Source: a virus
Length of the DNA: 64,000 nucleotides
Virus record (IMG/VR): IMGVR_UViG_3300028388_001808
Location: 1-64,000 of that record
Strand: one strand, 5' to 3'
A program made the translations under genes and the position numbers. The notes beneath the pieces are model-generated. The model ran no database searches, was not told where the DNA came from, and was given only the letters and a program-made list of their open reading frames with translations. This document shows, piece after piece, positions 6,001-59,142 of the stretch (its first letter is position 1; each line of letters begins with the position of its first letter).

Positions 6001-7593
6001 ATCGATGTATGAATCAAGCATCACACGATTAGCGCGATTGACATATACATCTTTCTTATTGTTAAAGAGTGCAGACTTATCATAAGCTTTTTCAAGCTTT
6101 GTGATCATGTCTACAGCTTCAGCAGCCCTTTCCCTTACTGTATCTAATTCGTCCTGTTCGAATCCTTCGCTGATCAGTTTGTCATCAGAGAGACTGCCTA
6201 TTTCATTATATATAGACAACAGCTTTTCAGTAGTACCTTCTTCAAAGGATTTAAAAGCCTGTTCTGTAACAAGCTTTTTAGTTATAGCTTCATAAGCAGC
6301 CTCATCCCCTCTCTCATAAGCATCTTGTGCTTGCCGGGTAAGGTTTGCTATCTCTCCAGCAGACTGATAGAAAGAAGTAAGTGCTTTGATGTTGCCTCCT
6401 GCGGTAATCTCTGAAAGTTCTTCAAGGACTTTCTGCTGTCTGTCGTAAAGCAGCTTTCTGTCCGTTACAAATCCTTCTCCTTTTCTATAATTAGATACCT
6501 TCTCTCCAAAGTTCTTTATTCCTACAGTACCTGATGTCTGAGCCACACCACCAATAAAACCAAGAACACCGGAAGAAATACCTTCAGCAGATACAGCATC
6601 GCGTATACCGTCAGCTACAGTGTAGCCTTCTTGAAGACCTCTGTTAGTGGCTACGTGGTTAATTGTTTCTTCAAAATACTCCTGCAACCCTTCAGCACCT
6701 GTACTTCTAAGTGTACGTAACATCGTAGGCTTAGGTACTATCTTTCTTGTGCCACTAAGAAATGCTCCAGGCTTAACAAACCTGTAAGCAGACGTAAGGT
6801 TAAGCAAGAAATTTACCCTGTTCATGTTATACGAAGAAGCTGCACGTTGAGCAGCATACGTCTTCGCCCCTTCTACATCACCAGGATTTTCGGTAAGGAA
6901 TTTATGGTAAGACTGATCGTAGACATCTACAGCAATTCCAAATCCTTCAGCATGAGTAAGCGCGTAAGAGTTGATTGCAGATTCTGTAGCCAGTCCTAGC
7001 TGTTTACCAGCAGTAGTACCCTTCATAAAACGCGAGACGGCGTTACCAGAACGCAGCACCTTCATTGCTTTTGGTAATTGTGTTACCTTCGATACGCCAT
7101 AGCCAGTTGCAAGAAAAGCAAAGACTGAACGAGTCAGGTCGGCTCCGTTCTGAATCCAGAATCCCGTATCGCTCAAAGCATGATCAATAAGAGGATCATT
7201 ATCTCTGTAGTAGATTGGATTCTTTTGCTGTCTTCCTGCAATCTGACGATTTGCCCACCGTCTGACATCACCTGCAAACCATCCCTGATCTCCCCCTTTC
7301 CAGCTTTTCAGATCAGCTATAGATGCGGCTTGCGCGACTACTTCAGGAACAATACCACCTCTTACCTGAGAGACGCCATTCCAGAACTTTCTGGTCCAGT
7401 GCTGTGCGGCATCTAAAGAAGTAGCCCTGTCAGATAACAGGGCTGGTGTAAGACCGTAGTATTTTTGAGTTGCTTTCCAACCTCCCTCAGTTACTGTTCC
7501 TTTACCAGGAGTACCGGGAATTGGACTGGGGTTCGAATGAAAGTAGCTGGGATTGAATTTTTTATCTCTAGGATCGCTATTTCCGTTACTCAT
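1..7593 (-). CDS. Giant virion protein (partial, runs off left edge)
   Basis: The frame opens at an ATG at 7593 and stays open to the window edge, giving more than 2,530 residues with the C-terminus missing. The start overlaps the upstream stop by eight bases (ATGAGTAA), so the two are translationally coupled. Visible features are a Pro/Ala/Glu-rich linker near residues 730-760, acidic linkers near residues 1450-1500 and 1690-1720, and long helical stretches between them. In crAss-like phages giant genes after the muzzle and cargo genes encode ejected proteins, including a virion-packaged RNA polymerase. I saw no clear DxDGD catalytic motif in the visible part, so the polymerase role is not supported here. 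The reading frame is certain; the function is inferred from position. Confidence 0.75.
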   Translation of the reverse strand, partial: MSNGNSDPRDKKFNPSYFHSNPSPIPGTPGKGTVTEGGWKATQKYYGLTPALLSDRATSLDAAQHWTRKFWNGVSQVRGGIVPEVVAQAASIADLKSWKGGDQGWFAGDVRRWANRQIAGRQQKNPIYYRDNDPLIDHALSDTGFWIQNGADLTRSVFAFLATGYGVSKVTQLPKAMKVLRSGNAVSRFMKGTTAGKQLGLATESAINSYALTHAEGFGIAVDVYDQSYHKFLTENPGDVEGAKTYAAQRAASSYNMNRVNFLLNLTSAYRFVKPGAFLSGTRKIVPKPTMLRTLRSTGAEGLQEYFEETINHVATNRGLQEGYTVADGIRDAVSAEGISSGVLGFIGGVAQTSGTVGIKNFGEKVSNYRKGEGFVTDRKLLYDRQQKVLEELSEITAGGNIKALTSFYQSAGEIANLTRQAQDAYERGDEAAYEAITKKLVTEQAFKSFEEGTTEKLLSIYNEIGSLSDDKLISEGFEQDELDTVRERAAEAVDMITKLEKAYDKSALFNNKKDVYVNRANRVMLDSYIDKINTAQNELIDEARTAINEAEQAGTLSTKLSEDVSLRYHLDNLVGDSGYAEGTPEAKAYDEFINKASAIPEVAQLMALQQQKAVLQDVINANTKEYHSLTSSEVQETLGKQMDLYTSLDKLRTERDDSVYANKVAKLKAKYDGILDKSVIDSIVDTTENARKEAIKKTKATLIDTLRDKMRKLTKRNVARKEQQEQQKREETETPVPTPAPTPTAEAPAAPPAEPATPTESEVSEEQLRQEYEATVAAQMDSTEDPIASQSEAVSSEQENLDNASSEEAEAWGNFMDSMNQQSDVVIVNNDDLFAPVSTDFTTQNLTFFSKAIDAVANRIGREPTFEEVARSFIDSVGMQPFQRYAITLALLYKHRSPESTESLSRLEEIINTINSQALPPTYEEIKETTEDEEKEEKKIVTLDQVLEYDEDGNIRIVNDAIEIAFNKVAYLSAEYDKIVIESENIQEVERQTIQNEGNPIEVNRNNPGALQFLLNPVGWKKNVILRKVADPSEIPVTVDHQADTIEKVPFKELNLQPGTYEYVARVPIEIVDADTGVVYGYLHEVNWVDTHNIAESQHETISKQRESLLNARAAILAQEEGLQTTIEKTSIGKSGRLTKAVPLNVANPDPNTKVVAISAQGELAETSTSVIPTDSVLGGKEYVDSIASDSVGKMFELRPIPANEGEPKYIMLPVKYGKVSEEAALSIAKAVEAYIMPGTDENARIIQDIQNATRIDISSAEGIEKYISLFVNTQKGIARGGDYRQVFVSALAQAEQHGTHIEDTSGRSSVIPASMSFIGVQHGSVVFGQVNRLTPDGKDFYHIHPNAMQNATEEDIQNLRSNLQFLAQSLLEKSYNYQLSHATTNPVVPIIKEDGTITADQNYVDHVKSRTLTNIPSFSVPTSEGTKYVTYIQPVVRIGTPEVGIIQEEDSEETTAPVTEVAPEVGTTTEEEAATETPEEEKSAEDILNELDNEYGYEDMEDAGDDMLFSREMSEEEEDAIRQRLAESRVGKLTNTQQAHITAYLFNVMSEAIQSARSTDRGEKWGARVGVVPFDLILKEINKTFESAILNRLDSARIQYNLARKKLDAGDTSYQKVVSRLLPIIESLETVSSPENKAKLIASAIDMLGKHMGVKLKYNKEEGSIEEYVLGRDNMLRKAEEGEVGEIQNIQEEQPLEDSEENTEDFSEEEQINERSYSKSSLEMDQKATITSRFRRFLSGVRALNEYGEPIKGFLGLPVYVPFDVAYNTVSAVIAKSNSPVSLDAMIGILEEQSKAIPWLKSLATRLKSEAVDQQIKNEFVVTMAKHAMDMKFVMYSRTKKGMVLRVYDSNASATERLIYNTWVNDFILSDLVYTDQNGEYLIDKDQAKAALAVFESMTFGLKVPKNLSTAFSKQFYRVISEQNEVGNNIIYVSPSDLPASSLAALNKKLQENKNAGLVLNGEQYAIYRSAIGDRELYVLEKFDRRGPQAPEIYEFLSFFNINLSPRAINGLINGEFKHRGRTVGLTTRITPAENTNNVLAALAHYLQKVISSDKDYNVTQDNPLDQSLIMSLARLEAVYTNRLMPNSVRTGDKTIYPYTQSKYATDRVTDLVTGRGNVLQQLLNTPFSSNSEWLRMLSSDEEFEGVPISEIMRDVFALAHLDINALKEHGKRNYRNAEIDSLPDADHEMVKLGFHQDTKQGKDVIYKGKTYRVAGFFLPTMSDKGSMLVTRTLVRKVDSSDFLSAEDGSPIISPDLVQYLFDQSVLPELKRIVHFFREVGSTDIKGYDLGARMFNFFPILNALKIPFDADGNKINILTFLENAAKEGLNTEAILQQYPNLEEAIIETLGKVITEKAENKVKKWKSLGVLVPDKDGNTTLPYFDSSYMSRFGQQPADNLAFMIATDFVLGNMIANANSFMTVIGDPALFAKTDSYGFDFSSKVVDAASRELLTPEDFNHAVSNTFTNVGKRLASLIAPGNKLANSENETYRQLFLKDRKSFSREIEYLAKVIDGKTFDKAAYDQMDSQR

Positions 7594-9823
7594 CTTCAGT
7601 GTTTGTAAAGTTGTACTCAGTTTCCCCTTCCGAATAGGATTGTAAGAGAGGCGGTGCTACATTATTAGCTGATTGTTGCAGACGTTGCTGGTTAGCTATT
7701 TTGTATATTTCCACTGCCAGTGCTTCCTGGTCTTTAGCCTTTAATTGCTCTGAATTCCCATCAGGGTCAGTAAGTGTGGCAGTGATCGTATTCGTTACAG
7801 GATGTCTTTTCATGCTTATCGTAACCTCGCCTAGCTGCATCACAGCTTCTTCGGAATGTGCAATACCTGAAAGATGAAGAGGTTCCATGTAATTAGCGTA
7901 CGCAGCCATCTTTACACCGTCCTGCCATTCAGCAGAACCGTACTCATAAGACTGCCACATTTTTTCTCCAAGATCATTCAGTAGCTGCGTCTCATTTCCT
8001 ATATCGGTAATTGCTGTAACCTTCTCTCTACCTAATACTTTACCGTCTTCGTCAAAGATGCTAAGCAAGAATACAGGCTTCCCTTCAAAATACTCAAGAC
8101 CTGGGCTACTTATATCTTTAGACGGATCACGAGTAGCGTATTTGTCATCATTTAGGATACCTCCTTTACCATTAACTCCGATGAGAGGTTTACCCTGCAC
8201 CGTCTTATAATCAGCGTAGATGTTTGAAAGTTGTTTCGTCAGCGTAGATTCGTAAGCACCTACAGTTGACTTGTAAGGTCCAGAATCAAATCCAGTAAAG
8301 TATGGAGCAGTTCCGGTAAGATGTACAATCTCTTCAGACTTACCAAACCTATTTACTGCTTTCTTATACTTTCCGTTGTACTTGTCAATAATACCATAGT
8401 GGTTTGACATGTTAGCAGTGTCATCATTTGTGATGCCCATTTTATCTAGCTGACGCATCAACCAATTATTCTTATTCTTTTCTTTAGCTGGATTCAACCC
8501 TTCTCTTACAAGCTTCTTAAAGTCTTCCATTCCTATCGGATCAAGACCATACTCGTATGCGTCTTTTTGATAGTCTGCGTACATTCTTCCCCAGCTAAAA
8601 TTAGCAGCGGGGCTATCGGCCATTTGTTTATCAAAAGCAGTTATGATGCTTTCATAGTTCTCGATATCCGATTCAAGACTTGAGATTCTTGCGTTTACGT
8701 CTTTGTACTCAGCAGTACCTGGTTCAAGTTGACTTAATTGCTGTTTAGCTACATCCAAAGCAGACCTGCTATCGTAGAGATTCTTGGAGGTTTCTTTGTA
8801 CGTAGGGAAGGCGTCAACTTGTTCACCTGCTGTGAACTTGCCGTAAATACCGGGAGACTTCTGATTCCAGTTTTTGTATTTCTTTTTGTAAGCCAGATTA
8901 GTAGCAGCTATAGCATCGTAGTCTCTGGATTTCATACTAGACGTTACCTTGAATTCCGATTTTGTCCTTGCGGCAGATGCGCCAAATACAATACTACCAA
9001 TTTGAGTATTCAGATTAGGTATTCTGTTACCTTCCTCATCTTCAATCCATACCTGATACTCATCAACAGGTTCAGTACCAGTAGCTTGCGCTACTGCATT
9101 CGACCACTGTTGCGCAGACATAAACACATCGCCAGGAATTTGAGACATGATCATATTTGTAATGTCTTCAAACTCCCTTCCTGTAACCTTACCAGATTGC
9201 CAAGCAGATTCCCATCTGCTAAGGTCTTGTCTTGTAAGACCGTAGACTTCAAGATCAGTATCTTTTATGTTATCTACTATCTGGTTGACCATGTTCGTGA
9301 TTTCCTTAGCGTCCACATGCTTTACCATGTTTGCTCCGGATATTTGACCATAAGTGCCTGTCGAAGGATTATAATTAAGAGGATCGACTTTTATGTTCGA
9401 TACGGCGTAGTTTGCAAGTATAGGATTATCCTTGTAGGTTTCCTTATACTGTTTAACCATTTCATCATACACCCCTTTACGCTTAAACATAGCAGACGCC
9501 TCTCCAGTCAACCAGTCTCTTTGTATCGTTCTACCTAGATTTGTTACTTTAGGCATGTACTTTCTGTACTGTAATGGGTCTTGTTGTATGCCTGAAGTAA
9601 TCTCATCTATCTCTGACTGGTATTTTCTTAACTTCTCCTGAAAAGCGGGCTGGTCTTCTTGTATTACTTCACCTTGAAGATACTCACTAAGAGTATAAGC
9701 ACCAGCCTCAGTAGCTGCTATCTTTTGATCCAGAGACTCGATTACCCCAAGTAATTGCTCTTGAGGTACTTTATAAGTAAAGTCCAGGTACTGACCTGGA
9801 CTTGTTCTATAATTTCGTGCCAT
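7586..9823 (-). CDS. Probable virion cargo/ejected protein
   Basis: This is a 745-residue soluble protein without signal peptide or membrane segment, rich in charged helices and Gln/Tyr/Asp. A coiled-coil-like stretch lies near residues 350-400. Its start shares one base with the stop of the upstream gene (TAATG). It sits between the LysM/phosphatase-like protein and the giant virion protein, where crAss-like phages carry proteins packed inside the capsid or tail barrel. No catalytic motif was recognised. The cargo role rests on position and size only. Confidence 0.55.
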   Translation of the reverse strand: MARNYRTSPGQYLDFTYKVPQEQLLGVIESLDQKIAATEAGAYTLSEYLQGEVIQEDQPAFQEKLRKYQSEIDEITSGIQQDPLQYRKYMPKVTNLGRTIQRDWLTGEASAMFKRKGVYDEMVKQYKETYKDNPILANYAVSNIKVDPLNYNPSTGTYGQISGANMVKHVDAKEITNMVNQIVDNIKDTDLEVYGLTRQDLSRWESAWQSGKVTGREFEDITNMIMSQIPGDVFMSAQQWSNAVAQATGTEPVDEYQVWIEDEEGNRIPNLNTQIGSIVFGASAARTKSEFKVTSSMKSRDYDAIAATNLAYKKKYKNWNQKSPGIYGKFTAGEQVDAFPTYKETSKNLYDSRSALDVAKQQLSQLEPGTAEYKDVNARISSLESDIENYESIITAFDKQMADSPAANFSWGRMYADYQKDAYEYGLDPIGMEDFKKLVREGLNPAKEKNKNNWLMRQLDKMGITNDDTANMSNHYGIIDKYNGKYKKAVNRFGKSEEIVHLTGTAPYFTGFDSGPYKSTVGAYESTLTKQLSNIYADYKTVQGKPLIGVNGKGGILNDDKYATRDPSKDISSPGLEYFEGKPVFLLSIFDEDGKVLGREKVTAITDIGNETQLLNDLGEKMWQSYEYGSAEWQDGVKMAAYANYMEPLHLSGIAHSEEAVMQLGEVTISMKRHPVTNTITATLTDPDGNSEQLKAKDQEALAVEIYKIANQQRLQQSANNVAPPLLQSYSEGETEYNFTNTEDE

Positions 9824-12273
9824 TATTCTTCTTTGATGTTTGTGTTATAGAGTTCGTAACCTCCTGTTTTCTTTCTTCGGATACCTATACCATACGTAGA
9901 CAGTTCAGGCAGAAGAGAAAGGAAGTCTTCATTCAGTTGCTGAGTATTCAGATCAGCAGCAGTCTTCTGTACGCCAGTACCTAGATTAACCAGATCAGCA
10001 TTGAGTTGCGTGTAGAAGTTATCACGATCCTGCTGATTAGCAGTGAAGGCTCTTTCCCTTCCAGCTCTTCTCTGCGCATCTACTTGCAGTTCAGTACCTG
10101 CCAGTCCTCTTAACTGTTCAGCCATCACTTGCGCGAACTGAGAACCAATCTGACCAGCTTGAGTACCTTCCTGTGCAGCAATACCCATGTAATTGGACAT
10201 TTGCTGTCCAACTCCACGAAGATTGTTTGCCGCCTGTCTGCGAAGACGATTTGCTATTCTGGTGTTTCCTCTCTTCGCTTCTTCTTCAGCCTGCTTCAAA
10301 GCCTGCAAACTCTTTTCGTAAGTAGCCAATGCGTCAGAACCAAAACCTTCCATAAAATTCGGAGTAGGTTCATCGCCAAGACGATTACCTAAAGTCATAG
10401 CCATAGGTCCGACTGCACTGATTGCAGTACCTGCGAATCCAATATCGTCCGGGTTTACAGTCATGCCCTCATTCACATCACCTACAGCTTCTTCAGGAGT
10501 GATTCCAGAAGGCTCAGGAACCAAGTTTTTCATGAAGTCTTCACCTACTACCGGAATAGAAGGAATCTGGTCAGAGAGACCAGCTATGTCTTCAGGAGGC
10601 AGAATTTCCATCCCGGAAGAGGTAGCGATTTGTGGTTGCTTTATAGTGTACGGACCTGTACCTGTTTCAGAGTTGACTAAAGGCATTTGAGGTATCGTAG
10701 CAGGTATACCAGAAGGACCGTAGTCATAGATGTCTTCTTGTGGCATTATTGGAGTACGCGGATCAAATCCACTAGGATTGTCGCGCATCTGACGAAACAT
10801 ACGCAAACGTTCTTCATAGTCTACAGGATTCGTAGGATCGCCACCATTTGCAATACCACCTGTTTGCATTTTCTTTATTCCTCCACACTTGTAGATTTCC
10901 TCCATCACTTCGTTCTCAGTTATACCTCCTTGTGCGTATCTGCGAAGTGCCGTACGAACAGGTTTCAACTGTTTGTTTCTGTAAGATGTTTCAGGAGTCT
11001 CAAGTATTTCCATGTATGGAGCGTAGTTCTTTCCCTTGCCGCTTACATTCGGATAGATGTTCTTCCCTTCTTTCCAGAAGTTATGTTCGATCACATCATC
11101 CATATTATATCCAGTTTCCAGAGCAGCTTGCGCACATACAGCACCAGTTCTATCATATCCGTGCTTGCACATCACGATAGCATTACCTTGCTTTACCGCA
11201 TCTACGGCTTTTCTGAAATTCGCTTTCTCTCCTTTTCCGGACAGATTACCAATAGGAAGATACTTCACTTTAAAACCAAGGTTCTCCAATTGCTTTTTGG
11301 AAACTCCTTCGTTTTGTCCTCTAAGCAATACAATTGTATTGACTTCCGGATGATCCGATCTGAATTGCGTAAGTTGGTCAGGACTTACGTCTCCGCTTCT
11401 GTAAGAACCTGCCACAGTAGGCCGGATTAACTTTGTTTGATTTCCTTTCGTGATCCCTTTAGCCGGAGAAAGGCTAGGTCTACTGACAGGGGAAAAAGAA
11501 GGGGATTTAGCAGGTTTATTGCGTTTAGCTGTAACGGTAGCTTCAGGAAGATTACCACCAGAGTAAGTAGGCTCTGTTTGTTTTCCTGGTATTCTTAGTT
11601 TGGTCCCTACCTGCAAACTTCTAGGATCGCTAATATTATTTGCCTTTGCGATCTCTTCCCAAGAGACGCCTTGTGCTTTACCTATACCCCAAAGCGTGTC
11701 TCCCTTTTTAACCTCTACGATTCCACCATCAGCAAACTTCTGAGTCATTGCATCTGTGGCTCGCATAGCCTCCATAACTGCCACATCGTGCATATCTTCC
11801 ATAGCAGTAGTCACACCTGCTCTTTCAAGTGTGTTTCTTGCTATTCTGTCAGTAGGAGTAGCGACGAACTTTTTGGTGACGTTATTCAGATAGTTCTCTC
11901 TTCTCTTTTTTCTTTCAGCCATTGTTTTGCCGTCTGGTCCTTTTACCCGCTTAGAGTAAATCTTCGTACCGTCTTTCAAAGCAACATCAATTCCTCCGTT
12001 TTCGTGAGACGGTCCTTTAAATTCACCAACACCTCCTTGAGGCGTTTCAAACATTTCTTTTCCTTCCACCTCAACCATTCCTCCTGTGGCATAAGGATTC
12101 TGCTGAAGATGATACGGAGTGACATCTGTTTTAAGCGTCTCGATCATATCAGCTACGGCAGTAGTAGCCATTGATACCAAAGTACCTACACCGTAGTCTG
12201 TAACTGGTGCAGTACCTGATGCAGCAGCTTCACCACCACTTAGATATTTTTCAAGTCTTTTCTTTTTCATCAC
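9823..12273 (-). CDS. Virion protein with LysM and CX5R phosphatase-like domains
   Basis: The protein has 816 residues. After an N-terminal Gly-rich region containing GPSHENGG, seen in my recollection in crAss-like cargo proteins, a LysM domain lies at about residues 187-229 (VKKGDTLWGI to GTKLRIPG), which would bind peptidoglycan. Residues about 290-400 resemble a dual-specificity/tyrosine phosphatase fold: a strand, then VMCKHGYDRTG with the CX5R signature (C369, R375). The C-terminal half is low-complexity and helical. It overlaps its neighbours by a few bases in the late operon. A role in passage through the wall, plus dephosphorylation of a host molecule after ejection, is inference; the phosphatase loop could also be a structural relic. 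Confidence 0.65.
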   Translation of the reverse strand: MMKKKRLEKYLSGGEAAASGTAPVTDYGVGTLVSMATTAVADMIETLKTDVTPYHLQQNPYATGGMVEVEGKEMFETPQGGVGEFKGPSHENGGIDVALKDGTKIYSKRVKGPDGKTMAERKKRRENYLNNVTKKFVATPTDRIARNTLERAGVTTAMEDMHDVAVMEAMRATDAMTQKFADGGIVEVKKGDTLWGIGKAQGVSWEEIAKANNISDPRSLQVGTKLRIPGKQTEPTYSGGNLPEATVTAKRNKPAKSPSFSPVSRPSLSPAKGITKGNQTKLIRPTVAGSYRSGDVSPDQLTQFRSDHPEVNTIVLLRGQNEGVSKKQLENLGFKVKYLPIGNLSGKGEKANFRKAVDAVKQGNAIVMCKHGYDRTGAVCAQAALETGYNMDDVIEHNFWKEGKNIYPNVSGKGKNYAPYMEILETPETSYRNKQLKPVRTALRRYAQGGITENEVMEEIYKCGGIKKMQTGGIANGGDPTNPVDYEERLRMFRQMRDNPSGFDPRTPIMPQEDIYDYGPSGIPATIPQMPLVNSETGTGPYTIKQPQIATSSGMEILPPEDIAGLSDQIPSIPVVGEDFMKNLVPEPSGITPEEAVGDVNEGMTVNPDDIGFAGTAISAVGPMAMTLGNRLGDEPTPNFMEGFGSDALATYEKSLQALKQAEEEAKRGNTRIANRLRRQAANNLRGVGQQMSNYMGIAAQEGTQAGQIGSQFAQVMAEQLRGLAGTELQVDAQRRAGRERAFTANQQDRDNFYTQLNADLVNLGTGVQKTAADLNTQQLNEDFLSLLPELSTYGIGIRRKKTGGYELYNTNIKEE

Positions 12274-15200
12274 TCCGATTTTATTTTGTCTACTTTAACA
12301 AAGTTAGTTAAAAGTTGAACATTGTTCAAGTTTAAAATGAATCTGATTGACAGATACTTATCTCTGAAGTTCTCAAGCTGTGACCAGTCTTTAGAGAAAT
12401 CTACAGCATCTGCATTAGGTTCTTTGTAGGGTACGATAGCACCAGTAGCTACTGGTACATCTGTATCTGTTACGTAATCGTAAAGTTCTGGTATATGCCA
12501 GGTTCTTTCTCTTTTGTCTATTTTTATGATGCCGTACTCGTCTTTTGCATAATCCGACACATAATCAAAATCAACTGACAGTGGTCGTAAAGACTGAAGG
12601 CCGGTAGATTGTCTATTTGTATAGCCCCACAATTGGTCAAATGTAATAAATCGCTGCTCCACACTATCCTTTATTGCTTCTGTATGCAGCTCAATGTACT
12701 GAAATTTAACCGTCTCGTCTACCCTATCTACTACTTCAAGTACGTGCGGATAGTTATTTCCATAGTATGAATTGAAGAGTTCTTTATTATTGTGTATCCA
12801 AACAGAGTCACCATTTGATGTGAAGAACGTGCGTTTGTTGTAGAACGCATAATTCGGTAAATAGCTGTGAAAGCTTATCCACTTATCTGAAAGCATATCA
12901 TAGCTTATAGTCCAGCTATAGTTGTCGAAATATCTCCTGTCATTGACATCCACGTACTCTAATGTGCTTCCAGTATTTAAAAACCAGTATCCGGTCTGTT
13001 CGTTATAAACCAAAAAACTTCTACTAGATAGTTTCTTTGGAGTGAAATCTTTCTTAGTGATAATCAACCTGTCTTCCTCAGCGTCGTAGTAAGTAATGTA
13101 GCCTACACCATGCGGGTGTGCAGGATTAGGTGTTTGAGTAGACTGTAGTCTTAAATTGTCTCTAAAAAAATCGTCAAGTCCATTTAACGATATAGCTTTC
13201 AGTTTGTCGCTCAGGACGTAAACTACTCCGTCTCTGCTATCCAGTATAACAGTTCCATAAGGAGTGCTTATCGTACTAGTACTATCCACACATCCCACAG
13301 CACCAAGTTCACTGTCTACCACTTCTCTTGGAGGAATAGCAAGAAAATCTCCAGTACCGATATACGTAACAAGATCACTGTTTATACGCTCTTGTAGATT
13401 TTGAGGTACGTAGAAGAGCATGTCTGTAGTAGTGACGTAAACTTTTTCTCCTTTTCGTATGATATTTGTTATTTCTCCGTAACGTCCAGGAAAATCTTGT
13501 ACATCATTTGCCAGAAAGATTTTCAGTGCGTCTGCTTGTTGTTCATTGAGGGATGTCTGTGACCAAGTTATTCGATTAGGAAACTCTTCCAGACATTCCG
13601 TGCAGTAGTCAAAAGCAACTGGCAGGGAGAAAAAAGACTTCTGTCGATTGTATCTCGAATAGTCCTTGTTGTAAAGATAAATCTCAGGACACAATACAGG
13701 CTTTACTTGGAATTCTTTTTCTTCTGTATTATAGTAGGTCGTCTTATCTTTTATAAAGTTGAAGACGTCTCCAGTCTGATAATAAGTACCACACTCTTGA
13801 TTTGACGCATAACGCAACGCCACATTGATTTCAGATTCAACCCACAGATTTCTAAACTCTTCTGTAAAGAGGATAACCTTTTTATCCAGAGAATCAAGAA
13901 AACCAAACTGATCCTGTACAGCACCATCAAGGTCTTGATCAGAAAGGCATTCTTCGTAGATACCATCTTTGATAAGTTTGGTGTGTATAGATACTGCACT
14001 TGCTGTAATACCTACATAAGCCGCTGCTGTGGCAGTCAAGGCTACTGCAATTGCTACACCCGCTGCCGGAGCAGCTACACCTAGTGTGACCGCTGTAATG
14101 ACCAAAGCTCCTACTATGGCAGCTATTCCAGCTACATTAGCCCAGGAACTTTCTTGGATGTCTCTTATCTTGGTATCCATCAAACGGAACTCTGAGATAA
14201 AGGCATCACCACCGAATATCAGGTTAGATGACTGGTTATCCAACATGCCAGCGTGTATCTTGTAATACTTCAGATTGAACAGATTGCTATAGACGTCTTT
14301 GTACGTCTTTATAGAAGTATAAGCATGTTGAGGTAGAAGTTCGTATGTGTGATAGGCGTTTATGTTATTTGTCATAGACATATTCGCCAACTCTACACCT
14401 TCTACTGTATCTTTAGAGACTGCACCAAGTTTGATGTTTCCACGTACCGCATAGTTTAACTGATCCTGTTGAACAGCTACGCTGGTACATCTGATTTCTC
14501 TATATCCGAAATAAATATCATCCTGGCTAGCTCCGGTAAGTTCTTTTATGTCCGTAGCTGAGTTGGTCGTTTGTATTCGCATGTCTCCTTCCACTTTCAA
14601 GTATCCGGAGAGCATTTCGTTCTGATAAAGGAATCTTGGTGTAGCGATAAATTGAAATGGATTATCGTTTGGTATTTCTCTCATGTAAGAGAAGGCTACC
14701 AAATCGCTACATCCTTCGTACCTAAAAGATACGCCTTTGTCCAATACTGTTTTATTTTCTTCTGTCCTTTCAGCAGTTACAATATAATGACCAACTATTC
14801 TGGGATCAGGATACGCGATATTATGGAAGCGCACACCAATAAGACGAATTACATCATCGTCATAATCATATTGTTTTTGCAGTCTTCTATCCGGCATACG
14901 GTGATGCCTTATTTTTTTCCCTGTCAGTTCATTCCCGCATACATCGACTCCCCAGATACTATTTCCATTGCAATCACGTATATCAGGATAAGTGCTGTTT
15001 TCCAATTCGTGATACCCCATTACACCAGTAGTAGGTGTTATCCTGTTTGCTGTATTATAGACTTGCCATCTTTTTAAATCTCCTGCTGTGTAATCATCAG
15101 GATCATTTACGACATGGCGTAAGTCTTCACTCCATTCGTTTATAGGTGAAGTGTCCCACTGTGTTGGAATAGATGGACCTGGAATAAATCCATTACCTCC

Positions 15201-16415
15201 TGTAATAAGTTGACAGGTTTCAGGATTTACGTTTGCGGGTCTTCCTGGTATATGAAAAGCAGGAGTCTCATATCCATTATCAAACACATAAACTACTCCG
15301 TAAGCTTTAACCTCATCACCCATTTCGCTCATCTTCTCATAGAGCGTATTTGGATTTTTCGGGTTGCCTTTGATTAGAGCATCTTTGGAAGGAACTTCTT
15401 CAATTTCATAGGTGGTAAAAACCTGAGAAGCCGCTCTTTGCAAAGCCGCAAAGTCCACTTTAGTACCTTTGTAGTTTGCAAGCATCAAACGATTCTCAGC
15501 TATCTCCATCGTTCTTACCTGTTGTATATCCTGTTTGGGTATAGCAAGCTCTTCCGCAGTAGTTTCAGTAAATCCGTTCGTTCCTCCGTCTACGACATAT
15601 ATGCTTTGACTTATAGGAATTTCAGGACTCACCAGATAAGAAGACGGCTCTCCTGTATTCGAATTTGCGGCTATTACAGCAATCTGATAGTAAACAAAAG
15701 AACTGTCAAGATTGCCTATTTCCAAAGTTATAGACTTCGATGTTGCTGGTAATCCATTAGTAGGATCAGTTTGTATATCTATACCACCATCTATACCTAC
15801 ATAAGTAGCAAACACAGATTCGTCATAGATAGCAACAGTAGGTGTAGAATCTATCCAGTGTGTTGGGTTTAGGTCTTCATCCAGATAGCGTATAGCAAAG
15901 TTGTACGTTCCTAAGCGAAGAGAACCTCCATAATCGTTGACAGAAGCAGAGATTTCCGGTATAGTTACATCGTCGATGAGCTTTATCTTATCTGGATTGA
16001 ATACTCCGGAATCATAATAATCCTCCAGCTTTGAGAGGTTTATAGTTCTTGGCGGGTTGTAGTCATCAGTGAAGTAGATTACTTCTTCACAGCCTCTGCG
16101 TATCCTGAAGATTACTTTCTTCATTTGGTGAAGAAGAGAAAAATTCAGTGAAGGTTCCTCCAATAGCACAGTTAACTGGCAGTTGGATAACCTGGCTATT
16201 GCAGAATTATTTGCAGAAGCAAGTAACAGAATAGTACTATCTGTAGCATACGTATGACCTATTATGCTATATCCGGTAGGTAGTTCCGCACATAACGCAT
16301 TACCATACTCATTAACAAACTTACCGTTTTGGGTCATTGCATTTAGTGCATAACGGTAAGAATTTTCAGGCTGTTCAATAGGATGACTGTCTAAATGCAG
16401 GAACTTAGGATACAT
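12270..16415 (-). CDS. Large tail protein, muzzle/tail-stabilisation-like
   Basis: This 1,381-residue protein starts MYPKFLHLDS and contains many repeated beta-rich segments, consistent with a propeller or layered-beta tail protein. A strongly hydrophobic Ala/Val/Ile segment lies near residues 755-810, which is unusual for a tail tube component and could insert in a membrane during infection. Position just after the ring/connector genes and before cargo genes matches the muzzle protein of crAss-like phages. The assignment is from gene order, length and composition, not from catalytic motifs. It overlaps both neighbours by 4 to 11 bases. Confidence 0.6.
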   Translation of the reverse strand: MYPKFLHLDSHPIEQPENSYRYALNAMTQNGKFVNEYGNALCAELPTGYSIIGHTYATDSTILLLASANNSAIARLSNCQLTVLLEEPSLNFSLLHQMKKVIFRIRRGCEEVIYFTDDYNPPRTINLSKLEDYYDSGVFNPDKIKLIDDVTIPEISASVNDYGGSLRLGTYNFAIRYLDEDLNPTHWIDSTPTVAIYDESVFATYVGIDGGIDIQTDPTNGLPATSKSITLEIGNLDSSFVYYQIAVIAANSNTGEPSSYLVSPEIPISQSIYVVDGGTNGFTETTAEELAIPKQDIQQVRTMEIAENRLMLANYKGTKVDFAALQRAASQVFTTYEIEEVPSKDALIKGNPKNPNTLYEKMSEMGDEVKAYGVVYVFDNGYETPAFHIPGRPANVNPETCQLITGGNGFIPGPSIPTQWDTSPINEWSEDLRHVVNDPDDYTAGDLKRWQVYNTANRITPTTGVMGYHELENSTYPDIRDCNGNSIWGVDVCGNELTGKKIRHHRMPDRRLQKQYDYDDDVIRLIGVRFHNIAYPDPRIVGHYIVTAERTEENKTVLDKGVSFRYEGCSDLVAFSYMREIPNDNPFQFIATPRFLYQNEMLSGYLKVEGDMRIQTTNSATDIKELTGASQDDIYFGYREIRCTSVAVQQDQLNYAVRGNIKLGAVSKDTVEGVELANMSMTNNINAYHTYELLPQHAYTSIKTYKDVYSNLFNLKYYKIHAGMLDNQSSNLIFGGDAFISEFRLMDTKIRDIQESSWANVAGIAAIVGALVITAVTLGVAAPAAGVAIAVALTATAAAYVGITASAVSIHTKLIKDGIYEECLSDQDLDGAVQDQFGFLDSLDKKVILFTEEFRNLWVESEINVALRYASNQECGTYYQTGDVFNFIKDKTTYYNTEEKEFQVKPVLCPEIYLYNKDYSRYNRQKSFFSLPVAFDYCTECLEEFPNRITWSQTSLNEQQADALKIFLANDVQDFPGRYGEITNIIRKGEKVYVTTTDMLFYVPQNLQERINSDLVTYIGTGDFLAIPPREVVDSELGAVGCVDSTSTISTPYGTVILDSRDGVVYVLSDKLKAISLNGLDDFFRDNLRLQSTQTPNPAHPHGVGYITYYDAEEDRLIITKKDFTPKKLSSRSFLVYNEQTGYWFLNTGSTLEYVDVNDRRYFDNYSWTISYDMLSDKWISFHSYLPNYAFYNKRTFFTSNGDSVWIHNNKELFNSYYGNNYPHVLEVVDRVDETVKFQYIELHTEAIKDSVEQRFITFDQLWGYTNRQSTGLQSLRPLSVDFDYVSDYAKDEYGIIKIDKRERTWHIPELYDYVTDTDVPVATGAIVPYKEPNADAVDFSKDWSQLENFRDKYLSIRFILNLNNVQLLTNFVKVDKIKSE

Positions 16416-17828: not shown

Positions 17829-18505
17829 CAGTTCTCTTTTAAGTCGAGTGTTCTGTCTTCCTGTACCGCAACAAACATTCGCTTCAGTTGCTCTATCGTA
17901 AGCGTGATAGCAGCGTCCAAAAATTTACCGTTCAAAGGATAGGATTTTTCAAATATATCAACACAATCCTCATCACATTGAGGGTACAACCATGCTTGTA
18001 CAGGATCATTGAAAGCGGCTACTACTGTGATCCTCTTATTCAGTCCTGTTGACACCTTATCATCAAGTACCCACAAATACTCATTGTGAAAAAAATATTC
18101 TCTGCTTTTTGAAGTGTACTTTTCGAACGACTTCACTCTGAAATGACTCCATTCAGTCGGATCAAACAGCGTATAACCGTCTACAGATGTTACAGACTTG
18201 ACTACATCTCGCATAGAACTTGCGATTATTGCAGGAAAAGGCTGCAAACTTTTATAGACGCTACAACCAGTAGGGACGCAGTTAGGACAATCTGTAAGTT
18301 CTGCTGGTTGTAATTCGATACAGGATAGTGTCTGGTAATCCCATTCAGATAGCCGCTGCCTCTTATCAATAGCCTGAGTCAGCAATTTTGACCGTATAGG
18401 AGCCAGTATGCTATAAATGGTTCTATTGTTAAGTCTCGTAACCTGAGAGGGAACACCTTTAGAGTATTCCGATTGTATCCTTGATAGTACCTCTCCTAAT
18501 GTCAT
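17828..18505 (-). CDS. Conserved structural protein of the tail/connector block
   Basis: A 225-residue protein beginning MTLGEVLSRIQSEYSKG. A helical N-terminal segment is followed by a small Cys-containing motif (CPNCVPTGC) near residues 74-82 and a second Cys pair (CDEDC) near residues 177-181, both possible metal or disulfide sites. It overlaps the nuclease gene by 47 bases, which suggests translational coupling. Position between the nuclease and the IHF-like protein points to a connector or ring role. No enzymatic motif was recognised. Confidence 0.55.
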   Translation of the reverse strand: MTLGEVLSRIQSEYSKGVPSQVTRLNNRTIYSILAPIRSKLLTQAIDKRQRLSEWDYQTLSCIELQPAELTDCPNCVPTGCSVYKSLQPFPAIIASSMRDVVKSVTSVDGYTLFDPTEWSHFRVKSFEKYTSKSREYFFHNEYLWVLDDKVSTGLNKRITVVAAFNDPVQAWLYPQCDEDCVDIFEKSYPLNGKFLDAAITLTIEQLKRMFVAVQEDRTLDLKEN

Positions 18506-19217
18506 GATGGTATTTGATTATTTGATCGCTAAAATCCCTGGTCAGAAACGATTGGTAGCCCTTTTCCCCCTTTGGTATTAACCATACAAGCATACAAGGT
18601 CCAACATCAAATCCAGCCAGTTTAAGCATTGCTTTGTAGTAACTGAGCTGTAATTCGTACTTTGTGTATTCTGACTGACTGATCTGTTGAAAGGGATACA
18701 AAAGCTTTTGATTCTTGTAGACTCTAAACATATCAGATTCGTTTGTTTTCCAGTCTACAGGTATAAGAGTGCCAGTTCTTCTACACTGTATTATCAAGTC
18801 TGTAGTACCTGCAATCTCTTCTTCTTTCCAGTAAAGTATCTGCTCAAAAGCTATTGGCCTGTATCTTGAAGGCATATTACTGTACCATTCTACAATAGCC
18901 TTCTTTTGTGGATGATCTGCTTCAGATGCGCTAACTACACCTCTTCCAAACAATTCTCCGAATTCATGAACATCACTACCTTTAATCAATGCTTTTTTCG
19001 ATTTATCTTCCCATCTTGCAAGCATTTCACTTTCAGAAGTACCTTCTTTTCTTGCACACCATTTAGCGATACTTTTATCAAACGGCGTATAGAATCTTTT
19101 AAGGTTGTGGCTTACTGAAGTAAATCGTCTTCCATTGATGTAGTATATGTGTTCAGGTTCTATCAGTTCTGCGTTTTTGAAGCGTTCTGTCAACTTTATT
19201 TTTGTACTCTCGTTCAT
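18459..19217 (-). CDS. PD-(D/E)XK nuclease (RecB/Cas4-like)
   Basis: The 252-residue protein carries the ordered motifs of the RecB/Cas4 branch of PD-(D/E)XK nucleases: GSDVHEFGE near residue 80 (motif I His/Glu), FEQ..WKEEEIAGTTDLI (motif II, metal-binding Asp), IPVDWKTNE (the D-x-K catalytic pair), and YELQLSYYKAML (Q-x-x-x-Y). It cuts or processes DNA. crAss-like phages often have such a nuclease inside the structural block. It is the first gene after a terminator, so it may start a separate transcription unit. A role in packaging, host DNA degradation or exclusion of other phages cannot be separated from sequence. Confidence 0.8.
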   Translation of the reverse strand: MNESTKIKLTERFKNAELIEPEHIYYINGRRFTSVSHNLKRFYTPFDKSIAKWCARKEGTSESEMLARWEDKSKKALIKGSDVHEFGELFGRGVVSASEADHPQKKAIVEWYSNMPSRYRPIAFEQILYWKEEEIAGTTDLIIQCRRTGTLIPVDWKTNESDMFRVYKNQKLLYPFQQISQSEYTKYELQLSYYKAMLKLAGFDVGPCMLVWLIPKGEKGYQSFLTRDFSDQIIKYHHDIRRGTIKDTIGIL

Positions 19218-20780: not shown

Positions 20781-22325
20781 TTACTGGCATGTAGTAACTA
20801 CTACACTTTCGCCAGAACATATAATTTGTATAGTAACAGTAGCTTCGTTAGAAGTTCCAGTTTCTCCAGAGTCTCCTCCATTATTGTTGGATACTGTATA
20901 TTTGAACGTAACAGTACCAGAATATGATTCTGGAGCGTAATATACTACTGTACCGTCACCTACAACATTTAACGTACCTACTGAAGGTTGCTCAGTTATT
21001 GTCAGTGTGTTTGGATCAAAGTCTGACCCATTAGCATTATCATTAGCAAGAAGGTCTATCGTAACAGAGCCGTTACATGCTACAGTTTCAGTATCAGCTA
21101 CTGCTGTAGGAGCAATTTGATAATCCAACAGTACAAAATATGCCGGTTCGTTACTTACATTTCCTTCTGTGTCTTCTAAAGAAAACTGAAAGCAATCACA
21201 TATACCTGGACCAGCGTTTACTGGAAGCTCGTAGGTTATTTTCTTATGAGCCGCAGAGTAGACTACGTTAGGATTTGCTACGTCGTCATAGCCATTAGCT
21301 TCTCCCAACACTGTAGCAGATTGCTGAGTGCCAGAATCTTTAAATTTAAGACTGTTCCAGTCTACATTTTCCGCCGGAACAGGGTGATTTGAGATATCGA
21401 TCTCTATCGTATCGGTAGCAAGTTTACCACTTGCATCCATTTGATAGGTTTTGTCTTTGAAGTAAATCTGAGCCTGTGCTTCGCATTCAGCTACCTCTAC
21501 GGTTATCGTTCCTGTGTTACTTCTTATACCCAAGACATCTTTTACAGAATAGGAAAGCTGGTACGTCCCAGCAGCAAGATTGGCTGGTGCGCTTAGTTTA
21601 ATCCAGTTTTCAGCAATTGCGAAAGGAGTACCACTGGGAATAGCAGCAAACGGATGTTCAATTCCTATGTTTGCAGATGTAGGTCCAAAAGAAAGTGTCT
21701 TCCAATCAAGTGCAGAAGAAGATTGCACATTTAGGTAGATGGAATTATTCTGTCTCGACCCATCAGGAAGACACACTAAAGCCGTAGAAAGGTCATAGGC
21801 TATAGGTCGAGTAAATATGTAGTTGATATTTGTGAATTCAGTACAGCCTGATGAATTTTTTACAATTACAGAAATAGGAGTACTTTCAGGCAGAGTATTA
21901 GGAGATACCAGGGATAGAGAAATAAATGGATTATTTGTGTCTGCTTGAGGATCAGATAACTCGAATACAGTAGGATCGTAGTTCCATAGATATTCGTATG
22001 TATCTGTTATAGGTGAGGCTACTACACTGAACGTAAAGTCATTTACAGATATGGGCGAAATCTCAAAATTAAGACATGGGTTTGCTACAGCTATAGCAAA
22101 GTTTTGAGTGCAATCGTCTTGACTGACTACTGTAAGTACAATGCTTGCAGACTCTCGACAAGCATCGTTCGGAAAAGATACCTGAAATTGTATTTTTCCG
22201 AATTCGTCCGACGTACCACTGGCAGGAGTAAAAGACACGCAGTCTTGACCTGACGTATCTGCAAGAGAGTAAGTCCAGGGACCAATACCACCAGCTACAT
22301 ATTTCGTGATTGTTACAGTAATCAT
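20781..22325 (-). CDS. Ig-like/cadherin-like repeat fibre protein
   Basis: A 514-residue, Lys/Arg-poor protein made of repeated beta-sandwich domains. The C-terminal domain (about residues 410-505) has the VDTETVACNGSVTIDLLANDN start and the GTVTFKYTVSNNNGG end typical of bacterial Ig/cadherin-like tandem repeats (Big_9-type). Several Cys pairs are conserved along the domains. It is likely a tail or head fibre, or an adhesin that binds host surface polysaccharide. It overlaps the previous gene by four bases. Confidence 0.6.
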   Translation of the reverse strand: MITVTITKYVAGGIGPWTYSLADTSGQDCVSFTPASGTSDEFGKIQFQVSFPNDACRESASIVLTVVSQDDCTQNFAIAVANPCLNFEISPISVNDFTFSVVASPITDTYEYLWNYDPTVFELSDPQADTNNPFISLSLVSPNTLPESTPISVIVKNSSGCTEFTNINYIFTRPIAYDLSTALVCLPDGSRQNNSIYLNVQSSSALDWKTLSFGPTSANIGIEHPFAAIPSGTPFAIAENWIKLSAPANLAAGTYQLSYSVKDVLGIRSNTGTITVEVAECEAQAQIYFKDKTYQMDASGKLATDTIEIDISNHPVPAENVDWNSLKFKDSGTQQSATVLGEANGYDDVANPNVVYSAAHKKITYELPVNAGPGICDCFQFSLEDTEGNVSNEPAYFVLLDYQIAPTAVADTETVACNGSVTIDLLANDNANGSDFDPNTLTITEQPSVGTLNVVGDGTVVYYAPESYSGTVTFKYTVSNNNGGDSGETGTSNEATVTIQIICSGESVVVTTCQ

Positions 22326-57577: not shown

Positions 57578-57696
57578 GGGGAGGTTGAAATGTTGGTCTT
57601 AGAGACAGAGAGGTGAATCCTCTCTTAGAACTAAACTAAAACTTTCAAGTACACTCATAATGTATCCTAACGTAGGTTCGATTCCTACCCTCCCCA
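57578..57696 (+). tRNA. tRNA(CAU) with intron in D-loop
   Basis: Acceptor GGGGAGG with CCTCCCC, anticodon loop CTCATAA (CAU, 57656-57658), and T-arm GTAGG-TTCGATT-CCTAC are standard. The D-arm pairs GAAA with TTTC across an insertion of about 40 bases in the D-loop. The insertion contains GAC, a helix AGAGAGG/CCTCTCT (57607-57625), then UAGAAC, i.e. the cassette motif in internal form. GUCUUAG also pairs with CUAAAAC across it. Reads AUG or, if modified, AUA. Confidence 0.75.
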
Positions 57697-57700
57697 CAAA

Positions 57701-57830
57701 AGTCCACTTAGAACTGTAACATAGTTACAAAATTTGCAGGTTCAAATCCTGCTATAAGCGAAAGCTTATATGGCGGAAATGGTATACGCACTTCACTTAA
57801 AATGAAGCATTTTAAAACAGACAGTGGACT
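57701..57830 (+). tRNA. Circularly permuted tRNA-Leu(UAA) in cassette
   Basis: Order along the gene: closing helix AGTCCACT/AGTGGACT (57701-57708 with 57823-57830), UAGAAC, variable-region part, T-arm GCAGG-TTCAAAT-CCTGC, acceptor 3' strand TATAAGC, GAAA, acceptor 5' strand GCTTATA, UG, D-arm GCG/CGC with GGT, anticodon arm CTTCA-CTTAAAA-TGAAG (UAA). Reassembled, this matches the tRNA-Leu layout with long variable arm. The GAAA is a tetraloop closing the acceptor stem. GAC precedes the 3' helix strand. Confidence 0.8.
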
Positions 57831-57842
57831 AAGACAAACGTA

Positions 57843-57892
57843 GGCGGAAGTCTAGCCCGTAGAAGGTAACTACAAATCAAATCCCTTCCGCT
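57843..57892 (+). ncRNA. tRNA-fragment-like hairpin between direct repeats
   Basis: GGCGGAAG (57843-57850) pairs with CTTCCGCT (57885-57892). Inside, GTAG/CTAC closes AAGGTAA. The eight bases AACGTAGG lie on both sides (57837 and 57894). It resembles a shortened tRNA acceptor/D-arm but has no complete arms. Confidence 0.4.
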
Positions 57893-57899
57893 GAACGTA

Positions 57900-57948
57900 G
57901 GAACCCCCTTAGTATCATGTACGCATGGTGTCTTAGTCAGGGGGTTCC
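57900..57948 (+). ncRNA. Degenerate UAGAAC-family cassette
   Basis: GGAACCCCCT pairs with AGGGGGTTCC (10 pairs). TAG follows the 5' strand and GTC precedes the 3' strand, as in the family, but the motif is UAGUAUC. The interior is a small hairpin (ATCATG/CATGGT, TACG loop). Confidence 0.5.
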
Positions 57949-57958
57949 AAAGAAAAAA

Positions 57959-58059
57959 CGTCTCGCTTAGAACAAACAAAAGTTATAGGTTCGAGTCCTA
58001 TATTTTCTCGATTTTGAGGAAATTAGCTTAATTGGTTAGAGCAAATAGGCAGCGAGACG
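57959..58059 (+). ncRNA. Permuted tRNA-like cassette without anticodon arm
   Basis: Closing helix CGTCTCGCT (57959-57967) with AGCGAGACG (58051-58059). Inside, in order: UAGAAC, T-arm ATAGG-TTCGAGT-CCTAT, acceptor 3' strand ATTTTCTC, loop GATTTT, acceptor 5' strand GAGGAAAT, UA, D-arm GCTT-AATTGGTTA-GAGC, then AAATAGGC. The closing helix stands where the anticodon stem would be. This is the topology of a tRNA mimic. Confidence 0.7.
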
Positions 58060-58066
58060 ACAAAAA

Positions 58067-58117
58067 GAGGGGCCAGCCTCCCAAATACCGATTCAAACAG
58101 GTAAGTGCTGGTCCCTC
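58067..58117 (+). ncRNA. Ends-paired RNA with T-loop-like arm
   Basis: GAGGGGCCAGC pairs with GCTGGTCCCTC (11 pairs, one G-U). Inside, TACC pairs with GGTA around GATTCAAACA, which contains a T-loop-like TTCAAAC. Not a complete tRNA. Confidence 0.45.
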
Positions 58118-58136
58118 CTACTTCGATCAAAGATTA

Positions 58137-58193
58137 GGGGGAGCCGATACGGTTGAACAAATCAAAAGGGGATTTTTTGATTCCGGCTCCTCC
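58137..58193 (+). ncRNA. Ends-paired RNA with long inner stem
   Basis: GGGGGAGCCG pairs with CGGCTCCTCC (10 pairs, one G-U). Inside, AATCAAAA pairs with TTTTGATT around a seven-base loop GGGGATT, anticodon-arm-like but lacking U33. Function unknown. Confidence 0.45.
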
Positions 58194-58203
58194 GACCTTA
58201 TAA

Positions 58204-58273
58204 GGTCCACTTAGAACTAAAACTAAAAACACCAGACTTGTAAATCCGGCAACGTTTTAGCAGTCAGTGGACC
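58204..58273 (+). ncRNA. Cassette F: UAGAAC/GNC family mini-RNA
   Basis: GGTCCACT (58204-58211) pairs with AGTGGACC (58266-58273). UAGAAC follows; GUC precedes the 3' strand. CTAAAAC pairs with GTTTTAG. The inner hairpin CCAGA-CTTGTAAA-TCCGG is anticodon-arm-like (UGU, Thr) with one mismatch. No D- or T-arm. Confidence 0.6.
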
Positions 58274-58290
58274 AAACTTCTATCATAACC

Positions 58291-58396
58291 GTCTCTCTTA
58301 GAACCAAAAAAACTTTGTATAGCTCATTGTAGAGCATCAAATTTAGGTTTTGAAGGTTGCTGGGTCAAACCAGCTACAAAAGTTTGACAGAGAGAC
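58291..58396 (+). tRNA. Cassette G: complete tRNA-like inside UAGAAC/GNC helix
   Basis: GTCTCTCT (58291-58298) pairs with AGAGAGAC (58389-58396). UAGAAC follows; GAC precedes the 3' strand. The inner RNA runs in normal order: acceptor (A)AACTTTGTA with TACAAA-A-GTTT, UA, D-arm GCTC-ATTGTA-GAGC, anticodon arm TCAAA-TTTAGGT-TTTGA (UAG), AGGTT, and a T-arm GCTGG/CCAGC with a six-base loop GTCAAA. The short T-loop and short variable arm make a functional leucine tRNA doubtful. Confidence 0.6.
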
Positions 58397-58399
58397 AAG

Positions 58400-58427
58400 G
58401 GAGTGCTTCGGCACTCCTTATTTTTTG
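58400..58427 (+). terminator. UUCG-capped terminator ending the cassette array
   Basis: GGAGTGC-TTCG-GCACTCC followed by a T-rich tract. It ends the transcript of the cassette array just before a standard tRNA. Confidence 0.85.
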
Positions 58428-58437
58428 TTTAACCGCT

Positions 58438-58511
58438 GGTCCCTTAGTTCAGTTGGTTAGAACCCCTGACTCATAATCAGGAAGTCGCAAGTTCGAGTCT
58501 TGCAGGGACCA
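58438..58511 (+). tRNA. tRNA(CAU)
   Basis: Fully canonical cloverleaf: acceptor GGTCCCT/AGGGACC, UA, D-arm GTTC/GAAC with GG, anticodon arm CCTGA-CTCATAA-TCAGG (CAU), T-arm GCAAG-TTCGAGT-CTTGC, discriminator A. Met, or Ile if C34 is modified; a second CAU tRNA lies at 57578. Confidence 0.92.
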
Positions 58512-58541
58512 CTACGAGGAGCAGCATCTCAAATCACAATT

Positions 58542-58700
58542 ATGAAAGACACAATAAAAACAAAAAAAAGATTTGCATTCTTTCCAGTTAAACTTAGTGA
58601 CGGGAGAATAATCTTTTGGAAAAAATACAAACTAACAGTAACAAAATCCTGGCATCCATCAGGGTTGACGGTAACAAAGAAGTATGAATGGATTCCGTAG
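58542..58700 (+). CDS. 52-residue protein overlapping a tRNA gene
   Basis: ATG at 58542 (MKDTIKTKKRFAFFPVKLSD). A basic, aromatic-rich small protein ending TKKYEWIP. Its TAG stop at 58698-58700 is U8-A9-G10 of the tRNA-Arg. A longer frame from 58500 would start inside the preceding tRNA and is less likely. Function unknown. Confidence 0.6.
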   Translation: MKDTIKTKKRFAFFPVKLSDGRIIFWKKYKLTVTKSWHPSGLTVTKKYEWIP

Positions 58701-58764
58701 CTCAGTTGGATAGAGCATCTGCCTTCTAAGCAGACGGTCACAGGTTCGAATCCTGTCGGGATCA
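58691..58764 (+). tRNA. tRNA-Arg(UCU)
   Basis: Canonical: acceptor GATTCCG/CGGGATC (one G-U), UA, D-arm GCTC/GAGC, anticodon arm TCTGC-CTTCTAA-GCAGA (UCU), variable CGGTC, T-arm ACAGG-TTCGAAT-CCTGT, discriminator A. Reads AGA/AGG, codons common in the phage genes seen here. Confidence 0.92.
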
Positions 58765-58796
58765 CAATTACTGTAATTACAAATAAATCTAAGCAA

Positions 58797-59018
58797 ATGC
58801 AAACAACGTTTATTGACATCGACACTAATGAGGCGCTCGACATTCAGTGGCATTCTAACAATGTGCCTGCTCGCCTGGAATACATTTCTGCTAATGGGAT
58901 ATGGTATAAAGTTGATGAGGTGGTGTATCGGATAGTAGAAAAATTAAATTTTACGCCACCGGAACAAATATTACCGGTTGTGTATCTCAAGAAAACAGGT
59001 AGACCGTATTTTATTTAA
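58797..59018 (+). CDS. Small protein between tRNA genes
   Basis: 73 residues, MQTTFIDIDTNEALDIQWHS..., a small beta-rich protein. It lies 33 bases after tRNA-Arg and ends 9 bases before tRNA-Leu. No family recognised; coding quality is good. Confidence 0.55.
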   Translation: MQTTFIDIDTNEALDIQWHSNNVPARLEYISANGIWYKVDEVVYRIVEKLNFTPPEQILPVVYLKKTGRPYFI

Positions 59019-59027
59019 GTTATAATT

Positions 59028-59108
59028 GCCCGGATGGTGGAATTGGTAGACGCGCTGGTCTTAGGAACCAGTGTTCTAGCGACGTGTGGGTTCGAGTCCC
59101 ACCGGGCG
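59028..59108 (+). tRNA. tRNA-Leu(UAG), acceptor 3' strand short
   Basis: GCCCGGA-UG, D-arm GTGG..., anticodon arm CTGGT-CTTAGGA-ACCAG (UAG), long variable arm, T-arm GTGGG-TTCGAGT-CCCAC, then CGGGC: the acceptor 3' strand is two bases short of the usual seven. Reads CUA. Probably still a tRNA gene; the shortened strand is odd. Confidence 0.8.
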
Positions 59109-59142
59109 TACAATATCTTTCAACTTAAAAACAACAGACACC

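What the first reader, a model, noticed from the sequence alone, without database searches (positions are those of the whole stretch)
9823..12273. Virion protein joining LysM and a CX5R phosphatase-like loop
A peptidoglycan-binding LysM (residues about 187-229) sits before a phosphatase-like segment with C369 and R375 in one protein of the ejection block. I know of no phage protein combining these. It may carry a phosphatase into the cell.
Basis: partly seen in the sequence, partly recalled or inferred. Interest (0 to 1): 0.65.

Follow-up and report, generated by a model that had tools for sequence, protein, structure and literature searches.

The report
Phage cargo protein carrying a phosphatase fold
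A crAss-like phage has built a cell-wall-binding domain and a tyrosine-phosphatase-fold domain into the protein that its relatives are thought to store inside the virus particle and eject early into the host, a combination found in none of about 50 related phages examined; whether the phosphatase is active is unknown.

Summary
The 816-aa product has a canonical LysM (187-229, Pfam E 7e-16) and, at residues 284-400, a dual-specificity-phosphatase (DSP/PTP) fold with loop C369-KHGYD-R375-TG. Two AlphaFold models match almost only PTP-fold structures in the PDB, and similarity to bacterial DSPs (nearest solved relative: periplasmic TpbA) extends beyond the loop. The protein is the crassvirus C1 cargo protein (phi-crAss001 gp45): it lies between muzzle and C2, and residues 65-183 are the portal-bound CARG1 domain, linked through an intermediate sequence. 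C1 proteins of relatives are modular; LysM and DSP are absent from every related record searched. Other C1 proteins carry lysozyme or peptidoglycan-binding domains, so envelope-acting modules have precedent; a phosphatase fold there was not found described. Caution: this DSP alone has Met instead of His before the catalytic Cys, and its general-acid loop lacks Asp, so activity is uncertain. Best reading: a C1 ejection protein whose LysM holds a DSP-fold domain at the periplasmic peptidoglycan during genome entry. New variant of a known kind.

The parts
9823..12273 (-). C1 cargo (gp45-position) protein, 816 aa; likely start ATG at 12270
   Evidence: gene order and CARG1 similarity
11725..12081 (-). 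residues 65-183: CARG1-like domain, the portal-bound domain of phi-crAss001 gp45 (residues 425-552)
   Evidence: hhalign vs Steigviridae C1 family E 4e-7, prob 93%; bridge L219 matches both this module and Pfam PF25725 over cut-off
11587..11715 (-). residues 187-229: LysM peptidoglycan-binding domain
   Evidence: Pfam PF01476 E 6.7e-16; over cut-off in a whole-record search
11074..11424 (-). residues 284-400: DSP/PTP-fold domain
   Evidence: AlphaFold pLDDT about 92 over most of this stretch; Foldseek best matches PTP/DSP-fold; leave-out profile 40.9 bits
11143..11169 (-). P-loop C369-K-H-G-Y-D-R375-T-G; preceded by Met368, not His
9871..10449 (-). residues 609-801: C-terminal module conserved in relatives (phrog_15413)
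   Evidence: PHROG E 4.5e-46
12270..16415 (-). muzzle protein (gp44 equivalent)
   Evidence: Pfam crAss_MUZ E 1.8e-34
7586..9823 (-). C2-position cargo protein
   Evidence: gene order as crAss001 gp46; phrog_14670 E 1.3e-13; no direct match to gp46

Best explanation
The gene encodes the C1 cargo protein of a crAss-like phage. About twelve copies would sit on the inner face of the portal through the CARG1 domain and be ejected through the tail before the DNA (inferred from phi-crAss001). In this phage the slot between CARG1 and the conserved C-terminal module holds a cassette of LysM plus a DSP-fold domain. After ejection the protein helps form the conduit across the envelope; the LysM binds peptidoglycan and holds the DSP-fold domain in the periplasm, where it dephosphorylates, or at least binds, a phosphorylated envelope component. 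Shown by computation: gene order, CARG1 similarity, LysM, predicted DSP fold with intact C/R loop, absence from relatives. Inferred: packaging, ejection, periplasmic site, any activity and substrate.
For: Order muzzle-C1-C2-giant ORF as in crAss001 gp44-47. CARG1 similarity by profile and by bridge. In phi-crAss001, gp45 was detected by mass spectrometry and cryo-EM, 12 copies of residues 425-552 on the portal, modelled as ejected first (PMC10172136). LysM. DSP fold. Best PDB sequence relative of the DSP profile is TpbA (E 4.5e-31), secreted to the periplasm (PMC4409338). Several bacterial relatives begin with signal-peptide-like N-termini (read by eye). Other C1 proteins carry phage lysozyme (PF18013 in L138 and L133) or PG_binding_1 (L190).
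Against: Met368 replaces the usual His and the acid loop lacks Asp, so it may be a weak enzyme or a pseudoenzyme. No relative carries the cassette, so selection on the active site cannot be measured. The C-terminal module has no detectable match to gp45. No N-terminal hydrophobic helix like gp45's was seen. The alignment-guided model is biased toward DSPs by its alignment, although the single-sequence model gave the same fold at low confidence (pLDDT 57).
Confidence: 0.5

Rival explanations
1. The DSP-fold domain is a catalytically dead remnant or pure binding domain: it uses the P-loop to bind phosphate groups (e.g. on LPS, capsule or peptidoglycan precursors) and, with LysM, only anchors C1 in the envelope.
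For: His-to-Met before Cys and no Asp in the acid loop, unlike most of 15 relatives; peptidoglycan-directed modules recur in C1 proteins.
Against: C, R and the whole CKHGxDRTG loop are intact; two bacterial relatives (L151, L154) also lack an acid residue in that stretch; TpbA D105A lost only 53% of catalytic efficiency (PMC4409338).
Confidence: 0.3
2. The domain is an active phosphatase that refolds in the host cytoplasm, acting on host phosphoproteins, nucleotides or RNA 5' phosphates early in infection; LysM only assists passage.
For: Crassvirus cargo includes RNA polymerase proteins expected to refold in the cytoplasm (PMC10172136); structural matches include RNA 5'-triphosphatases.
Against: Structural matches at this level do not separate PTP subfamilies; the sequence profile ranks periplasmic TpbA far above RNA phosphatases; C1 is modelled as envelope-spanning; LysM is an envelope domain.
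Confidence: 0.15
3. Assembly artefact: a bacterial LysM-DSP segment was joined to the phage gene during metagenome assembly.
For: Cassette absent from all related records.
Against: One uninterrupted frame; G+C of the cassette (0.43-0.44) equals the rest of the gene; the slot varies between 11 and 420 aa in relatives anyway. Reads could not be inspected.
Confidence: 0.04

Closest known systems
phi-crAss001 gp45, cargo protein C1 (Pfam PF25725 crAss_CARG1)
   Same: Position after the muzzle gene and before C2; CARG1 domain; expected portal-bound, ejected cargo
   Different: Short N-terminus without the tail-lumen segment and hydrophobic helix; a LysM-DSP cassette follows CARG1; C-terminal module not recognisably alike
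C1 proteins with phage tail lysozyme PF18013 (Kahnovirus cr85_1, bajarodcaudo virus 1)
   Same: A cell-wall-acting domain fused to CARG1 in C1
   Different: Lysozyme, N-terminal of CARG1; here LysM plus DSP fold, C-terminal of CARG1
TpbA-type bacterial periplasmic dual-specificity phosphatases (PDB 4r0s, 2m3v)
   Same: DSP fold, YRS...CKHGxxRTG signature
   Different: Here part of a phage cargo protein with LysM; Met instead of His before Cys; no Asp in the acid loop; about 20% identity to the DSPs aligned
Flavobacterium phage FpV4 / FPSV-S29 (Fipvunavirus) C1 homologues
   Same: Same N- and C-terminal conserved modules (32-43% identity)
   Different: No LysM, no DSP

Membership tests
Crassvirales C1 cargo protein (gp45) | Gene directly downstream of muzzle, upstream of C2 and giant RNAP-associated gene | tested here: met
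Crassvirales C1 cargo protein (gp45) | CARG1 portal-bound domain | tested here: met
   No direct Pfam hit, but profile-profile E 4e-7 and bridge L219
Crassvirales C1 cargo protein (gp45) | N-terminal hydrophobic/transmembrane helix as gp45 136-158 (a trait of gp45, not taken as defining: many relatives also show none) | tested here: not met
   Hydropathy scan finds none before CARG1
Crassvirales C1 cargo protein (gp45) | Present inside the virion | not testable with these tools
   Needs mass spectrometry or cryo-EM
LysM domain PF01476 | Score over curated cut-off, full-length domain | tested here: met
   58.4 vs 20.9 bits, positions 2-43/43
CX5R dual-specificity/tyrosine phosphatase | PTP fold | tested here: met
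   Predicted structure only
CX5R dual-specificity/tyrosine phosphatase | C-x5-R-[ST] P-loop | tested here: met
   C369-KHGYD-R375-T376
CX5R dual-specificity/tyrosine phosphatase | His before catalytic Cys and Asp in the general-acid loop | tested here: not met
   Met368; no D/E between -31 and -21 of Cys, Glu at -20. Hence filed as DSP-fold, not as a proven enzyme
CX5R dual-specificity/tyrosine phosphatase | Curated family score (Pfam Y_phosphatase3, Tc-R-P) | tested here: not met
   16-20 bits, below cut-offs 22.2 and 27
CX5R dual-specificity/tyrosine phosphatase | Phosphatase activity | not testable with these tools
   Needs an assay

The most novel reading that the evidence does not exclude
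A phage virion delivers an active, peptidoglycan-tethered dual-specificity phosphatase into the host periplasm at the moment of genome entry, using a swappable slot of the C1 ejection protein: a virion-borne modifier of the host envelope's phosphorylation.
Probability: 0.3. Interest if true: 0.75.

Novelty: new variant of a known kind. Interest (0 to 1): 0.5.

Why it matters
C1 is the crassvirus cargo protein seen in place in a virion, yet its job during entry is only modelled. Finding cell-wall binders, lysozymes and now a phosphatase-fold domain joined to its portal-bound core suggests that C1 works in the periplasm and that its variable slots carry envelope-directed functions. If active, this would be, as far as the searches here show, the first phosphatase proposed to be delivered inside a crassvirus virion.

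Tried and rejected
Single-sequence scans of viral contigs with the whole protein and with the DSP part found nothing. The DSP part has no match in phage records and only weak matches to plasmid DSP genes. The stricter motif scan of viral contigs was empty; the looser one gave 12 stretches, nine of them real-looking DSPs in unrelated contigs. The C1-family profile against PDB gave nothing. Recoding was considered for the window start, but a standard-code 2531-aa frame simply runs off the end. Foreign base composition of the cassette was tested and not seen.

Full report
What is there. The finding's coordinates hold one open frame on the minus strand, 12273 to 9823, 816 aa. The first codon is GTG, but the next codon is ATG (12270) and overlaps the stop of the upstream gene, so translation probably starts there and all residue numbers fall by one. 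LysM lies at 187-229 (Pfam E 6.7e-16). C369 and R375 are in the loop CKHGYDRTG.

Context. The window is part of a 93,733-base viral record. Pfam and PHROGs identify crassvirus muzzle, ring 1, ring 2 and major capsid protein, portal and terminase. The nearest named phages by terminase are the Fipvunavirus phages of Flavobacterium psychrophilum (42%). Order on the minus strand is ring 2, a small gene with weak HU-like similarity, ring 1, muzzle, this gene, a C2-position gene, then a frame of at least 2531 aa. phi-crAss001 has muzzle gp44, C1 gp45, C2 gp46 and RNAP-related gp47 in the same order.

Identity. Twenty records hold relatives that share two modules with this protein, residues 65-183 and about 609-801. 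The first aligns by profile-profile comparison with gp45-family residues 437-537 (E 4e-7, probability 93%); the C-terminal module shows no such match. That is the segment of gp45 (425-552) resolved as 12 copies on the portal (PMC10172136). An intermediate, L219, matches our module (E 9e-10) and Pfam crAss_CARG1 over its cut-off (40 vs 27 bits). I therefore take the protein to be C1.

Variable architecture. Between the two modules relatives have 11 to 420 aa, this protein 425; before CARG1 they have from almost nothing to about 1000 aa. No relative has LysM: 0 of 19 other alignment members, 0 of 32 records, 0 of 20 further records (where this genome does ring). None has the DSP domain: 0 of 32 records with the sequence, 0 of 44 records with a DSP profile that did find this genome at E 1.7e-36. 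Elsewhere C1 proteins carry phage tail lysozyme (cr85_1 and bajarodcaudo virus 1, both over cut-off) or PG_binding_1 (L190, just over cut-off). HExxH motifs occur in three other N-extensions (pattern only).

The phosphatase-like domain. Pfam matches are below cut-off (Y_phosphatase3 17-20 bits, Tc-R-P 16-19 bits). A single-sequence AlphaFold model of residues 284-450 was poor (pLDDT 57), yet its 50 best PDB matches were all PTP-fold proteins. With 15 DSPs found by motif in viral and bacterial contigs, pLDDT rose to 78 overall and about 92 for roughly residues 284-390; of the 50 best PDB matches, 48 are named phosphatases or capping enzymes of that fold, and two are chains of an axonemal structure whose description names no single protein. 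Because those 15 were chosen by the loop motif, I tested the rest of the domain: a profile without our sequence gives 40.9 bits; shuffles that keep the loop reach at most 29.0; with the loop masked it gives 6.4 against at most 5.2 in masked shuffles. The last margin is small. The profile's best PDB relatives are TpbA entries (E 4.5e-31), then plant and yeast atypical DSPs. TpbA is secreted to the periplasm (PMC4409338).

Activity. The residue before Cys is His in all 15 others and Met here; between positions -31 and -21 from Cys there is no Asp or Glu here, Glu349 at -20 being nearest. Two bacterial relatives also lack an acid in that stretch, and in TpbA D105A cost about half of catalytic efficiency. 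Activity is therefore open, about even.

Mechanism. phi-crAss001 C1 is held at the portal, extends into the tail, and is modelled as ejected first to build the envelope channel. Here the LysM-DSP cassette follows the portal-bound domain, so it would lie on the capsid side and leave after CARG1 (inference). LysM would then tether the emerged protein to peptidoglycan and present the DSP-fold domain in the periplasm (inference).

Literature. No paper in the library holds 'phage', 'LysM' and 'dual specificity phosphatase' together, nor 'bacteriophage', 'tyrosine phosphatase' and 'ejection protein'. A Crassvirales review mentions possible phosphatase domains in tail spikes, not in cargo (PMC10136315). 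Most subscription journals and all preprints are outside the library.

Limits. Records very near the window's own are withheld from the searches, so closer relatives with the cassette may exist. Absence in fragmentary viral records is weak evidence singly; the statement rests on the C1 gene being present in those compared.

Noticed in passing
L130 residue 154, L161 residue 393, L219 residue 59 of the C1 frames: HExxH (zincin-like) motifs in N-terminal extensions of C1 proteins of related phages; possible protease modules.
   Followed up: partly
L138:2693-5464, L133:2236-5199: Phage tail lysozyme domain (PF18013) fused upstream of CARG1 in C1 of two crAss-like phages.
   Followed up: partly
window 57578-59109: tRNA cluster on the plus strand: five by Rfam, three by ARAGORN (Met, Arg-tct, Leu-tag).
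   Followed up: no
window 18459-19217: Exonuclease-like gene (phrog_298, E 1e-19) lying within the tail-gene block.
   Followed up: no
window 20781-22325: 514-aa protein with a C-terminal bacterial Ig/cadherin-like domain (Big_9, E 1e-13) in the structural block.
   Followed up: no
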